Source: Flavobacteriaceae bacterium
Lineage (GTDB): Bacteria; Bacteroidota; Bacteroidia; Flavobacteriales; Flavobacteriaceae
Assembly (NCBI GenBank): GCA_024644725.1
Contig: JAHEHE010000002.1
Location: forward strand, 26,072 to 90,071
Direction of reading: 5' to 3'
Length of the DNA stretch: 64,000 nucleotides
Shown: positions 57,467-62,922 of the stretch, one piece after another
Layout of the letters: every line of letters starts with the position of its first letter
How positions within the stretch are numbered: position 1 is the stretch's first letter
Translations under genes and position numbers: made by a program
The notes under the pieces: model-generated
The model's input: the letters and a program-made list of their open reading frames with translations, nothing else
Databases searched by the model: none
What the model was told of the DNA's origin: nothing

Positions 57467-58252
57467 ATGAATTCTTTTGATTATTGCCGTAATCAAAAGA
57501 GACTCATGAAATCAATTCTCACACAAGGTTCTGCAGAACACAACTATGTCATTCATCGACATGAAAACCGGAACAAAAGCAGCCTTCTTTATTTGATCCT
57601 CCTGATCGCCATCATTTTGTCACTCCTGGCATTGCCCTGGATTCAAATTGACTCGGTTACCACTTCCCCGGGGGTGATCGCACCTCCCGTCGAGCCCATT
57701 GAGATCAGGGCGAGATCAACCGGTGAAATCAATTTTTTCGATCTGGAGGAAAATCGTTTTGTAGTTCAGGGGGACACCCTCTTCTCGATCCGGCAAAGAG
57801 GTATAAAATCAGAGCAATTCCATCGTGCCCCCATGGATGGATATGTTCGCAGCCTGAGGATTGAAGCTCACAAGTCTATTGTCTCTGCGGGTGAAAGCAT
57901 ACTTGAAATCCAGTCCGACAGCGATCTTGTCGTGAAATGCTACCTGTCGGGCGATAAAATTGCATCCTTGCAACCGGAACAGAATGTGGACTTTTTGGTT
58001 CGCTCCACGCGAAAAGAAAGAGACAAAAGCTTTTCCGGAAAGATCACAAACATCCTGCCCGATCTCAGCAGGAAGGATAAGGCTTCTGTTTTTGAAGTCC
58101 GGTGTTCGATTGACAAGACCGCTGAAAATGATCCCAAAGCTTCCGGGTTGAAACCAGGAATGACCCTTCTCACCCGTTTTCGACTGGCGAGAAGATCTGC
58201 TTTTGACATTATCTCAAAAGATGCTGAAGACATCAATCAAAACCCGTCATGA
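57467..58252 (+). CDS. Short HlyD-family periplasmic adaptor
   Basis: N-terminal TM (SLLYLILLIAIILSLLALPWI), TTSPGVIAPPVEPIEIRARSTGEI, lipoyl-like APMDGYVRSLRI..SIVSAGESILEI. Overlaps the transporter gene by 4 nt (ATGA). Confidence 0.82.
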   Translation: MNSFDYCRNQKRLMKSILTQGSAEHNYVIHRHENRNKSSLLYLILLIAIILSLLALPWIQIDSVTTSPGVIAPPVEPIEIRARSTGEINFFDLEENRFVVQGDTLFSIRQRGIKSEQFHRAPMDGYVRSLRIEAHKSIVSAGESILEIQSDSDLVVKCYLSGDKIASLQPEQNVDFLVRSTRKERDKSFSGKITNILPDLSRKDKASVFEVRCSIDKTAENDPKASGLKPGMTLLTRFRLARRSAFDIISKDAEDINQNPS

Positions 58253-60369
58253 ATTCAGCAGTTTCCTTCATCAAAGCCAGAAAGCTCAAAACCCGCCAGC
58301 AGGATTTCACGGATTGTGGAGCAGCTTGCTTGGTTTCCATTAGCAGGTACTACGGATTGCGCGTTGCGATCAGTCAGGTCAGGTCCTGGGCAGGAACGGA
58401 CCAGCAAGGCACGAGCATCATGGGACTCCTGGAGGCATCAAAAAAGCTCGGATTCGATGCCCGGGGAGTCCGGGGAGATCGAAAGAGCCTCTTTAAAATT
58501 CCCAAACCCGCTATCGCGCATGTTGTGCTCAACAACGGACGTCATCACTATATTGTCATCTATCAGGTCAAGAGAAAGTTTATCCAGATCATGGATCCTG
58601 CAAGCGGGAAATTACGGCGCATGAACTGGCATGAGTTCTCAGAGATTTGGAAAGGCATTCTTTTGATTCTTATGCCGTCAGAGTCCTTCGAGCCAGGAAC
58701 AAAAAAGGCGAAAGTCCTGCCTTGGTTTTGGAGACTGCTCAAACCTCACTATGCGATTCTCGTTCAGGCCATTGCCGGGTCGCTGCTCTATACCTTGCTG
58801 GGCTTCTCAACTTCCGTCTTCATTAGAAACATCACGGATAAGGTTTTGGTTTTCGGTGATTTATGGCTTTTAAAGACCATGGGGACAGCCATGATTGTCA
58901 TTCTGATTCTGCAACTCTGCCTTAGCGTATTCAAAGATGTGTTCATTGTGCGTATTGGGCAGGAAATCGATGCCCGCCTGGTTCTTGGCTATCAGAACCA
59001 CCTTTTCCGTCTTCCGCAGAGATTCTTCGATACGATGAAAATTGGTGAAATTATCTCAAGGGTGGGAGATGCCATCAAAATAAGAATGTTTATCAGCCAC
59101 ACGGTGATGTCACTCACAGTGAATGTGTTCATAGTGATCCTATCCTATCTTTTAATCCTTTATTACAACTGGAAGATTGGTCTGTTTCTGTTCGCGATGA
59201 TCCCACTCTATGTTGCGGTTTTTCTTCTGACTGATATGTTCAATAGAAAAACGGAAAGGAAAGTGATGGAGGCGTCGGCTCAACTCGAGAGTCATCTGGT
59301 GGAGTCCCTGCAAGGCATACGTACCCTGAAGTTCTTTGGTGCCGAATCCTATGTTCTGGAAAAAACAGAAGTGAAGTTCCTGTCCCTTTTGAAGGCCGGT
59401 TATCGTTCTTCTCTGAACCAGGTTTTCGCCCGGAGCAGCTCTTTCGGCATTCAAAATATTTTTACAATCGGCCTTCTTTGGATCGGGTCCTTTTACGTTC
59501 TTGAATCCCGGCTTACGACAGGTGAGCTCTTGTCGGTATATGCCATACTCGGCTATCTCACCGGGCCAATTGCCGCCATCGTAGCTTCCAACAATAGCAT
59601 TCAAAATGCCCTTATCGCGGCTGACAGGCTTTTCGAAATCACTCACCTCGATGCGGAACAGACCAGGCAAGGTGTTTCACTGAACGAATACCAGCCTGGT
59701 GACATCGTTTTCGATAGAATCGAATTCAATTATAAACCCGGCGTGAAAGTGCTCAACCGATTCAGTGCAACCATCCGGGCGGGCGAGATAACCGCGATCA
59801 AAGGTGAGAGCGGTTCTGGAAAATCAACCCTTTTAAACCTTCTGCAGCGAAGCTATCAAATTGAAAAGGGCACGATCAAAATCAGTGGAGTCGATCTGCG
59901 CTACATCAGCGACGACAGTTTGAAAAAAGCAATTTCAGTGGTTCCACAAAGTGTCGAGCTCTTCTCCGGAACAATTGCCGAAAATATTGCTTTGGGTGAT
60001 TCTTCTTTCGATCTCAAAAGGGTATTGGATATCATCTCCCTCCTGGAAATGGAAGGTTTTATATCAAAACTCGAACACGGCTGTCACACCTTCATCGGAG
60101 AGAGCGGAGTCAATCTTTCAGGGGGCCAACGACAACGCATCGCTATTGCCCGGGCGCTCTATCGAAAACCACAGATTCTGCTTCTCGACGAGCCTTCCAC
60201 TTCCCTGGACACTCAATCCGAAAAGTCAATGATTCGTGCCATGCACAATTTGAAAAGTCAAGGAAAAACGGTGATCCTCGTATCCCATCGTCAAAGCACC
60301 CTCGCAGAGGCAGATCGTATTTTGGTCCTGGAAAAGGGAAAACTAGCTCAAGAAACCCAACTCAACTAA
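58249..60369 (+). CDS. Peptidase C39-containing ABC transporter (PCAT-type, double-glycine peptide exporter)
   Basis: C39 Cys DFTDCGAACLVSISRYYG, His HHYIVIYQV, Asp IMDPASG; TM domain; Walker A GESGSGKST, signature LSGGQRQRIAIARAL, Walker B ILLLDEPSTSLD. Confidence 0.95.
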   Translation: MNSAVSFIKARKLKTRQQDFTDCGAACLVSISRYYGLRVAISQVRSWAGTDQQGTSIMGLLEASKKLGFDARGVRGDRKSLFKIPKPAIAHVVLNNGRHHYIVIYQVKRKFIQIMDPASGKLRRMNWHEFSEIWKGILLILMPSESFEPGTKKAKVLPWFWRLLKPHYAILVQAIAGSLLYTLLGFSTSVFIRNITDKVLVFGDLWLLKTMGTAMIVILILQLCLSVFKDVFIVRIGQEIDARLVLGYQNHLFRLPQRFFDTMKIGEIISRVGDAIKIRMFISHTVMSLTVNVFIVILSYLLILYYNWKIGLFLFAMIPLYVAVFLLTDMFNRKTERKVMEASAQLESHLVESLQGIRTLKFFGAESYVLEKTEVKFLSLLKAGYRSSLNQVFARSSSFGIQNIFTIGLLWIGSFYVLESRLTTGELLSVYAILGYLTGPIAAIVASNNSIQNALIAADRLFEITHLDAEQTRQGVSLNEYQPGDIVFDRIEFNYKPGVKVLNRFSATIRAGEITAIKGESGSGKSTLLNLLQRSYQIEKGTIKISGVDLRYISDDSLKKAISVVPQSVELFSGTIAENIALGDSSFDLKRVLDIISLLEMEGFISKLEHGCHTFIGESGVNLSGGQRQRIAIARALYRKPQILLLDEPSTSLDTQSEKSMIRAMHNLKSQGKTVILVSHRQSTLAEADRILVLEKGKLAQETQLN

Positions 60370-60381
60370 TCCCAGTGATTC

Positions 60382-60738
60382 ATGAATAACTTGAAACAAA
60401 TCGAACAACTCAGAAAATTGCACGGCATGATCAAACTGGAGAATACCGGGAGTCCAAAAATGATGGCAAAAAAGATGCATGTCAGCGAAAGACAGCTCTA
60501 CAACCTGATCGACCAACTTCGGACCATGGACGCTCCTATTCAGTTCAACAGGCGTGCAAATACCTATTTCTACACCTGTGATTTTGAACTCCTCGTAAAT
60601 ATTTCGGTAAAGGTGATTCAGGGTAATCAGGTTCTTCAGATCTACGCCGGAGAAAAAGTGAAGCCTGTTTCTCGCTCCCTGCATGGTTTGTGCAGGCGCG
60701 AAAACTATCTTGGTCAAGTCATGACATTTATACGTTAA
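60382..60738 (+). CDS. Small HTH-containing putative regulator
   Basis: 118 aa; GSPKMMAKKMHVSERQLYNLIDQLRTMDAPIQFNRRANTYFY looks like a winged-HTH; 12 nt after the ABC gene. Confidence 0.7.
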   Translation: MNNLKQIEQLRKLHGMIKLENTGSPKMMAKKMHVSERQLYNLIDQLRTMDAPIQFNRRANTYFYTCDFELLVNISVKVIQGNQVLQIYAGEKVKPVSRSLHGLCRRENYLGQVMTFIR

Positions 60739-60772: not shown

Positions 60773-60949
60773 ATGAAACAAATTGAATTATTGGAAATGA
60801 AAGAACTTAACAGACTTGAGCTTTTGGAAACCAAAGGTGGAAATCCCATCCTGGTGGGATTGGGCGTGCTCACAACCATGATCAGCCTTGGCAAGGCCAC
60901 AGATCAGGCCGGCGAATGGTTCATGCAGGGATGGAACAACCCCAAATAA
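60773..60949 (+). CDS. Double-glycine leader peptide 1 (58 aa)
   Basis: Read manually: MKQIELLEMKELNRLELLETKGG|NPILVGLGVLTTMISLGKATDQAGEWFMQGWNNPK. Below the track cutoff; directly downstream of C39 exporter genes. Confidence 0.8.
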   Translation: MKQIELLEMKELNRLELLETKGGNPILVGLGVLTTMISLGKATDQAGEWFMQGWNNPK

Positions 60950-60964
60950 AGCCTTGCGAAAATC

Positions 60965-61141
60965 ATGGAAACAGTTGTATTGAAAAAAAACGGATTCGCT
61001 GCTTTGTCAAAAACCGAGCTTGTCGAGATCCAGGGAGGCGGAGGGCCAATCGGTGAAGCTCTCGAGTGGTACTATAAGACAATGGGCAGCTTTTACAGGG
61101 GGTTGTGGGATGGACTCACAGGAGCCGAACCAAAACTTTGA
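60965..61141 (+). CDS. Double-glycine leader peptide 2 (58 aa)
   Basis: Read manually: METVVLKKNGFAALSKTELVEIQGG|GGPIGEALEWYYKTMGSFYRGLWDGLTGAEPKL. LSxxELxxIxGG leader match. Confidence 0.85.
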   Translation: METVVLKKNGFAALSKTELVEIQGGGGPIGEALEWYYKTMGSFYRGLWDGLTGAEPKL

Positions 61142-61389
61142 TGACTATGAAATTTGTGAATACGAAATTCTGGGTCTATCTGTTTTTGCTCGTGGGAATC
61201 GGTAATTTTTTGATGATGATTGACACCCTCTTATCGTCCGGGGATCAGGCGTTTTCAATTTTCTCTATTCCAACGAGCAAAGGGATTAATGTCGCCTTTT
61301 TCGCGGCTATTGCTTTTTTTCTGATCTATTCTGGGGTCTATCAAAACAAGAAAATGAATGAAAATCAAAACAAAGATGTTGTTGACTGA
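61141..61389 (+). CDS. Small two-TM protein, candidate immunity protein
   Basis: TGATG overlap with peptide 2 stop; MTMKFVNTKFWVYLFLLVGIGNFLMMIDTLLSSGD...GINVAFFAAIAFFLIYSGVYQNKK. Confidence 0.65.
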   Translation: MTMKFVNTKFWVYLFLLVGIGNFLMMIDTLLSSGDQAFSIFSIPTSKGINVAFFAAIAFFLIYSGVYQNKKMNENQNKDVVD

Positions 61390-61552
61390 AAACAAGGGTT
61401 TGAGCTCGCTTGAATGGGAGGAGCTCATTCAAATTACGGGAGGGGCGGAACCTGCTGAGGGTTCATATGCTACCGGATATGCCATAGGAAAGTGGTTCAA
61501 TCAAATGTTCCAAATTTGGCACTACGGACTTACGCATTTGAGCGACCGATGA
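61358..61552 (+). CDS. Double-glycine leader peptide 3 (64 aa, or 58 aa from ATG 61376)
   Basis: ...MLLTENKGLSSLEWEELIQITGG|AEPAEGSYATGYAIGKWFNQMFQIWHYGLTHLSDR; overlaps the 3' end of the two-TM gene. Confidence 0.82.
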   Translation: MKIKTKMLLTENKGLSSLEWEELIQITGGAEPAEGSYATGYAIGKWFNQMFQIWHYGLTHLSDR

Positions 61553-61626: not shown

Positions 61627-62922
61627 CTAGGATACTTTGAGAAGGAAGTAGTTCCTCTTGCCTCTTTGCATAAGGATGAACTGATTGGCGATCAAGTCAT
61701 TCTCTGAAAGGGCAAAATCTTCTTTTACCTTTTCTTTGTTGATCGAGATCGAATTTTCCTTTAAAGCACGCCTGGCTTCTCCATTTGATTTCAGGAAACC
61801 GGATTTTTCGTTGAGGGCATCTACAATATCGATACCGTTTTTAAGATCTGCCCTGGACAAATCTGCCTGGGGGACTCCCTCAAAAATATCTAAAAAGGTT
61901 TGCTCATCAATGGATTTCAAATCCTCAGCCGTTGATTTTCCAAATAGAATGCTCGAAGCCCTGACAGCATTCTCCCAGGCTTCTCTGCCATGAGTCATGA
62001 CTGTCACTTCCTCTCCGATTCGCTTCTGAAGCAATCGCATGTGAGGTGCCTTATTATGTTCCTCGATCAAACCGTCAATTGTGTTTTTATCCAAAAAAGT
62101 AAAAATCTTGATATAATTCTCTGCGTCCTCATCAGAGGCATTCAACCAGTACTGGTAAAATTTGTAGGGAGAAGTCCTTTTGGGGTCCAGCCAAATGTTC
62201 CCCCCTTCGGTTTTGCCGAATTTCGTGCCATCGGCTTTGGTGACCAGTGGACTGGTCAGTGCATAGGCCTTACCCTGTACTTTTCTGCGAATCAACTCGG
62301 TTCCGGTCGTAATATTGCCCCATTGGTCGCTCCCTCCAATTTGCAGTTTGCAATTATAATGGGTGTATAGGTGGAGAAAGTCGTAACCCTGTACAAGCTG
62401 ATAGGTGAATTCGGTGAAGCTCATCCCTTCTTTTGATTCGGAGCTGATCCGGTTTTTAACCGAATCCTTTGCCATCATATAGTTCACCGTGATATGCTTT
62501 CCGATGTCCCTGGCGAATTCAAGGAACGAGAGGTTCTTCATCCAATCGTAATTGTTGACCATCTCAGCTGCGTTGTCAGCATCGGATGAGAAATCGAGAA
62601 ATCGTTCAAGGGTTTTCTTGACACCCTTAATATTCTTGTCAAGGGTTTGCTCATCCAGCAGATTGCGTTCATTGGACTTGCCCGATGGATCCCCGATCAT
62701 TCCGGTAGCGCCTCCAACAAGGGCTATGGGCTTGTGTCCCGCCTTTTGCAGGTGCATCAAGAGAACAATCTGAACCAAACTTCCGATATGCAGAGAATCT
62801 GCCGTGGGATCAAAACCGATGTAGGCGGATGTCGACTCCTTTTGAAGTTGCTCCTCGGTACCGGGCATAATATTGTGCAAAAGCCCCCTCCACCTCAACT
62901 CTTCAACGAAATTGTCTGTCAT
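61627..62922 (-). CDS. tyrS: Tyrosyl-tRNA synthetase
   Basis: [62 protein letters not shown] (KMSKS-type). Confidence 0.96.

What the first reader, a model, noticed from the sequence alone, without database searches (positions are those of the whole stretch)
60773..61552. Three precursors share a leader signature and a core motif
Aligned on GG, all three leaders have Leu at -12, Glu at -8, Leu at -7 and Gly at -2/-1; peptide 2 has the full LSxxELxxIxGG form. The cores are 35, 33 and 35 aa. They share a tryptophan-centred motif: AGEWFMQGW (1), ALEWYYKTM (2), IGKWFNQMF (3). Small-xxx-small motifs also occur: AxxxA in 1 (ATDQA), GxxxG in 2 (GLWDG) and in 3 (GYAIG). GxxxG-like motifs are known helix-packing elements in two-peptide bacteriocins, so the cores may form a multi-peptide complex.
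Basis: partly seen in the sequence, partly recalled or inferred. Interest (0 to 1): 0.75.

Follow-up and report, generated by a model that had tools for sequence, protein, structure and literature searches.

The report
Conserved three-peptide bacteriocin-like secretion cassette
A marine-type Bacteroidota bacterium carries three small exported peptides whose mature parts, order and partner genes are kept together across its genus and in other genera, which makes them look like one three-part antibacterial weapon of a kind otherwise known mainly as two-part weapons of Gram-positive bacteria.

Summary
The three double-glycine precursors are real and far beyond chance. They lie behind a HlyD-like adaptor, a C39 peptidase/ABC exporter (the only C39 in this genome) and a small HTH protein, with an 80-aa two-TM protein between peptides 2 and 3. 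The cassette P1-P2-TM-P3 recurs in the same order in nine genomes of the genus (Lutimonas-like Flavobacteriaceae), beside tyrS wherever checked. The mature cores are 65/74/82% identical while the leaders are 25/29/34% identical, so selection acts on the cores.

Four genomes from three other genera carry recognisable P1-, P2- and P3-like peptides in the same order, each directly followed by a CPBP/Abi membrane protease (EExxFR, H, HxxxN intact). That is the family of PlnI and PlnL, the immunity proteins of two-peptide plantaricins.

GxxxG in peptides 2 and 3 is invariant in the genus and recurs in distant sets. The AxxxA of peptide 1 is not conserved. The W motif is genus-specific.

Best reading: a three-peptide, class IIb-like secreted bacteriocin (about 0.62). 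Activity, synergy and stoichiometry are untested. The cores are neutral to acidic, unlike known class IIb peptides. New variant of a known kind.

The parts
57467..58252 (+). HlyD-like membrane-fusion/adaptor protein, 261 aa, shorter than the ~380-aa version of several relatives
   Evidence: Pfam HlyD_3 5.6e-17; length comparison
58249..60369 (+). Peptidase C39-containing ABC exporter (PCAT), 706 aa, predicted to cut after GG and export
   Evidence: PF03412 1.8e-33, ABC_membrane 1e-43, ABC_tran 1.8e-32; only C39 match in the genome
60382..60738 (+). Small HTH protein, 118 aa, putative regulator of the operon
   Evidence: Weak HTH_11 (below cut-off) and WYL-like matches; homologues in 29 of 201 family genomes, many next to GG-leader peptides
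60773..60949 (+). Peptide 1 precursor, 58 aa: leader 60773-60841, core 60842-60946 (35 aa)
60965..61141 (+). Peptide 2 precursor, 58 aa: leader 60965-61039, core 61040-61138 (33 aa)
61088..61114 (+). SFYRGLWDG: SxxxGxxxG motif of peptide 2, small residues invariant in the genus; GxxDG also in other genera
61147..61389 (+). 80-aa protein with two hydrophobic segments, candidate immunity protein; an alternative ATG at 61141 overlaps the peptide 2 stop
   Evidence: Conserved between P2 and P3 in the genus; hydropathy; role inferred
61376..61552 (+). Peptide 3 precursor, 58 aa (64 aa if started at 61358): leader 61376-61444, core 61445-61549 (35 aa); start overlaps the end of the two-TM gene
61463..61489 (+). 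SYATGYAIG: SxxxGxxxG motif of peptide 3, small residues S, G, G invariant in the genus; YxxGYxxG-type core in other genera
61627..62922 (-). Tyrosyl-tRNA synthetase, the conserved chromosomal neighbour that marks the site
   Evidence: Present beside the cassette in the genus loci checked

Best explanation
The locus makes a secreted three-component bacteriocin that works like a class IIb bacteriocin of lactic acid bacteria. The C39 domain of the ABC exporter cuts each precursor after GG. The exporter and the HlyD-like adaptor carry the cores out of the Gram-negative cell. Outside, the three cores fold as amphiphilic helices, pack partly through the GxxxG faces of peptides 2 and 3, and disrupt the inner membrane of related bacteria, probably through a receptor. 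The two-TM protein between P2 and P3 protects the producer, in the role that a CPBP/Abi protein is proposed to take in the sister systems of other genera. Shown: gene order, leader and exporter, strong core conservation, CPBP neighbours in the relatives. Inferred: cleavage, joint action, killing, immunity, and whether all three peptides are required.
For: Intact GG leaders beside a PCAT and a HlyD protein, the only C39 of the genome. The same four-gene cassette occurs in nine genomes. Cores are more conserved than leaders (65/74/82% against 25/29/34% identity; nonsynonymous differences per site 0.12-0.22 against 0.47-0.52, with synonymous sites near saturation), so each core is under purifying selection. 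Similar triplets in the same order occur in four genomes of three other genera, and P2 and P3 profiles hit the same genomes. In all four, PF02517 (CPBP/Abi) above the Pfam cut-off lies directly downstream with the catalytic motifs intact; PlnI and PlnL of plantaricins EF and JK are of that family (PMC8538875). GxxxG motifs are a feature of all characterised class IIb bacteriocins (PMC6382864). Predicted core helices span residues 28-55 of P3 and 28-52 of P2. The P2 profile scores PlnJ above all but 2 of 4000 shuffles, and the P3 profile scores PlnE above all but 4 of 4000.
Against: Net charge of the cores is +1 to -2 in the genus and down to -6 elsewhere, unlike the cationic class IIb peptides known to me. 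No profile match to a solved bacteriocin, and family models are reached only weakly and mostly through the leader. The resemblance to PlnJ and PlnE is weak and was picked from 12 comparisons. No CPBP protein in the window's own cassette; immunity by the two-TM protein is inferred. No activity data. High core conservation between species is unusual for a weapon under diversifying selection.
Confidence: 0.62

Rival explanations
1. A two-peptide bacteriocin (P2+P3, the two with conserved GxxxG) plus an accessory or independent peptide P1.
For: Only P2 and P3 keep GxxxG in the genus; L066 has P2-like and P3-like peptides without a clear P1; P1 is the least conserved core.
Against: P1 is present and first in all nine cassettes and in the other-genus triplets, and its core is under purifying selection.
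Confidence: 0.17
2. A set of exported signalling peptides (pheromones) that act on kin, with the HTH protein as part of the response.
For: GG leader plus PCAT is also used for peptide pheromones (general knowledge); an HTH gene is part of the gene run; cores are conserved between species and are not cationic.
Against: No sensor kinase or receptor gene among the neighbouring genes examined; three different helical cores of 33-35 aa are more than a signal needs; CPBP immunity-type neighbours in the relatives.
Confidence: 0.12
3. Three independent single-peptide bacteriocins that share one exporter.
For: GG bacteriocins often sit in groups; other loci with the same HTH family carry varied numbers of unrelated GG peptides.
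Against: Constant order and co-occurrence across four genera, and one membrane immunity candidate for three peptides.
Confidence: 0.07

Closest known systems
Class IIb two-peptide bacteriocins of the plantaricin JK / EF type
   Same: GG-leader precursors in one gene run, PCAT export, short helical cores with GxxxG motifs, membrane immunity candidate; sister systems have a CPBP/Abi protein as PlnI and PlnL are. P2 of relatives has RGxYDGxxG where PlnJ has KGFYDGEAG; P3 has GYAIG, as does PlnK.
   Different: Three peptides, not two; Gram-negative host with a HlyD adaptor; cores neutral to acidic; no significant sequence match to known members.
Multi-peptide leaderless bacteriocins (garvicin KS, aureocin A70)
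   Same: More than two peptides act together.
   Different: Those lack leaders and are not exported by a C39 transporter (general knowledge); here each peptide has a 23-25-aa GG leader.
Bacteroidetocins
   Same: GG-leader peptides of Bacteroidota exported by a C39 ABC transporter (PMC6671954).
   Different: Peptides with four cysteines, 15-16-aa leaders and no evident immunity protein; the window cores have no cysteine.
Class II microcins (colicin V type) of Enterobacteria
   Same: GG leader, C39 exporter plus HlyD-type adaptor in a Gram-negative cell (general knowledge).
   Different: Single, larger peptides; three short cores here.

Membership tests
Class IIb (two-peptide) bacteriocins | GG-leader precursors adjacent in one operon with a C39 exporter | tested here: met
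   (co-transcription itself not tested)
Class IIb (two-peptide) bacteriocins | GxxxG or GxxxG-like motifs in the peptides | tested here: met
   Invariant in P2 and P3 in the genus, not in P1; P1-like peptides of other genera contain them
Class IIb (two-peptide) bacteriocins | Exactly two peptides | tested here: not met
   Three conserved precursors in the same order in nine genomes and in four of other genera
Class IIb (two-peptide) bacteriocins | Dedicated membrane immunity protein in the operon | tested here: inconclusive
   Two-TM protein present with unknown function; CPBP/Abi protein in the sister loci
Class IIb (two-peptide) bacteriocins | Cationic amphiphilic cores | tested here: not met
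   Net charge +1 to -2 in the genus; amphiphilic stretches are present
Class IIb (two-peptide) bacteriocins | Sequence match to a curated class IIb model or known member | tested here: not met
   P2 reaches 21.0 bits against a 21.5 cut-off of TIGR03949, over the leader and first core residues; no PDB profile hit
Class IIb (two-peptide) bacteriocins | Both peptides needed for full activity | not testable with these tools
   Needs synthetic peptides
Bacteroidetocins | Four cysteines and a 15-16-aa leader | tested here: not met
   No cysteine in the cores, leaders 23-25 aa
Leaderless multi-peptide bacteriocins | No leader peptide | tested here: not met
   GG leaders with the C39 signature

The most novel reading that the evidence does not exclude
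An obligate three-peptide, GG-leader bacteriocin of Gram-negative bacteria, old enough to be shared between genera of Flavobacteriaceae, in which three different helices build one membrane complex and the immunity protein was exchanged between lineages (CPBP protease in some, small two-TM protein in Lutimonas).
Probability: 0.4. Interest if true: 0.78.

Novelty: new variant of a known kind. Interest (0 to 1): 0.6.

Why it matters
Class IIb bacteriocins are described as two-peptide systems of Gram-positive bacteria, and I found no report of such a system in Flavobacteriaceae in the searched library. A conserved three-peptide set with class IIb-type partners would extend the type to a Gram-negative phylum and to three components. 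It offers a clean test of GxxxG-driven assembly, because nature supplies aligned variants with invariant and variable positions. It might also offer narrow-spectrum agents against Flavobacteriaceae.

Tried and rejected
PDB profile searches with the three core alignments gave only chance matches. The mere presence of small-xxx-small motifs was rejected as evidence, because 84-96% of shuffled cores have one. The randomised-placement test of conserved i,i+4 small pairs is not significant for P2 (0.34) or P3 (0.14), so the GxxxG case rests on conservation across genera and on precedent. PlnJ and PlnE resemblance was tested against shuffles: suggestive only. The P3 profile in an order-wide sample found nothing outside the family. 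Plasmid search for P3: no match. The viral contig scan gave no answer. P1's AxxxA was rejected as unconserved. L028/L086 at first looked like a cassette separated from its exporter; both are cut by 100-N joins of a scaffolded MAG, so this is probably an assembly effect.

Full report
Locus. The window lies in a 2.83-Mb draft genome. Named relatives with the same cassette include Lutimonas saemankumensis and L. halocynthiae, Flavobacteriaceae. The gene run is HlyD-like adaptor, C39 ABC exporter, 118-aa HTH protein, P1, P2, 80-aa two-TM protein, P3, then tyrS on the other strand. The genes are tightly packed: 34 bases between HTH and P1, 15 between P1 and P2, an ATG overlapping the P2 stop, and the P3 start inside the end of the two-TM gene. 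This is what one would expect of an operon, though transcription was not tested.

Observation. A mechanical scan of the whole window scored just these three ORFs clearly. Relatives favour ATG 61376 as the start of P3.

Conservation. Of 22 genomes in the genus set, 14 have an exporter match. Eight, window included, carry P1-P2-TM-P3 in the same order in the loci fetched. A ninth copy, L086, is cut by N gaps of a scaffolded MAG. tyrS flanks the cassette in every copy for which the flank was read. In L087 the rest of the locus is gone between the O-methyltransferase and tyrS; only a stub of the TM gene and an intact P3 remain. Three genus members (L021, L023, L029) have related exporters with other GG peptides. 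Mean core identity is 65, 74 and 82% for P1, P2 and P3; leaders without GG are 25, 29 and 34% identical. Synonymous sites are near saturation in both parts, so the core conservation reflects purifying selection over long divergence and not recent transfer.

Other genera. The P3 and P2 profiles find, among 400 family genomes, the same distant genomes: G184 and G363 (one genus), G188 and G326; P3 also finds G144. Some of these distant sequences are in the profiles themselves, so the wide-profile E-values for them are not independent; G188, G144, G363 and G326 were first found with the genus-only P3 profile at E 3.2e-7, 6.9e-5, 3.6e-4 and 1.7e-3, and the G184 locus first through the HTH protein. 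Their loci carry P1-like, P2-like and P3-like precursors in the same order. The alignments share YxxGYxxG (P3), GxxDG (P2) and a weaker C-terminal pattern in P1; the P1 correspondence rests largely on position and is the least secure. Directly downstream of each triplet lies a 232-259-aa multi-TM protein that passes the Pfam cut-off for PF02517, with invariant EExxFR, H and HxxxN. PlnI and PlnL, the immunity proteins of plantaricins EF and JK, belong to this Abi family (PMC8538875). An order-wide sample found no P3 outside the family.

Motifs. GxxxG by itself is no evidence, since most shuffled cores have a small-xxx-small pair. SxxxGxxxG is invariant in P2 and P3 of the genus and GxxxG recurs in the distant P2-like and P3-like peptides. 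P1 has no conserved i,i+4 small pair in the genus. The W[FY] pair is invariant in the genus at different places in each core and nearly absent elsewhere, so it is a genus trait, perhaps an interface anchor (inference). Profile scores against plantaricin sequences verified in the PDB single out P2-PlnJ (2 of 4000 shuffles as good) and P3-PlnE (4 of 4000) among 12 comparisons: suggestive, not proof of descent.

Structure. AlphaFold gives P3 one helix over residues 28-55 (pLDDT 74-92 in its blocks) and P2 one helix over 28-52 (block pLDDT 65-70). Complexes could not be modelled.

Mechanism. The anatomy is that of an exported, apparently unmodified peptide system: cut after GG, exported by PCAT plus adaptor. 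The joint conservation of three cores and the Abi-type neighbours point to a multi-component bacteriocin. Cores of charge +1 to -2 differ from cationic class IIb peptides; this may reflect a Gram-negative, saline setting or a receptor-led action (inference), and it keeps the signalling rival alive. No sensor gene was seen among the neighbouring genes examined.

Verdict. A new variant of a known kind: class IIb-like in parts and partners, with three peptides and a Gram-negative host. It is not filed as a class IIb member, because the two-peptide and cationic features were tested and not met.

Noticed in passing
57467-58252; L019, L026, L027, L028: The HlyD-like adaptor is 261 aa here, 247 in L019 and 212 in L026-L028, against about 380 aa in L020, L022, L025 and other loci: the middle part (expected coiled-coil hairpin) is missing in two groups, yet the cassette is kept.
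   Followed up: partly
L087:6980-7156: An intact orphan P3 remains beside tyrS after the exporter, HTH, P1, P2 and most of the TM gene were lost.
   Followed up: partly
60382-60738; L060-L079: The small HTH protein belongs to a family found in 29 of 201 family genomes, often next to HlyD and varied GG-leader peptides, sometimes next to unrelated genes; a possible marker for peptide clusters in Flavobacteriaceae.
   Followed up: partly
L063:5541-6587: Three tandem GG precursors with strongly repetitive Gly/Val/Leu cores, an unrelated peptide type behind the same HTH family.
   Followed up: no
L066:5676-6181: The CPBP protein behind the P2-like/P3-like pair seems broken into pieces.
   Followed up: no
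L028, L086: Single-contig MAG records (CP070731-like) contain 100-N joins that separate exporter and cassette; gene order across the joins is unreliable.
   Followed up: yes
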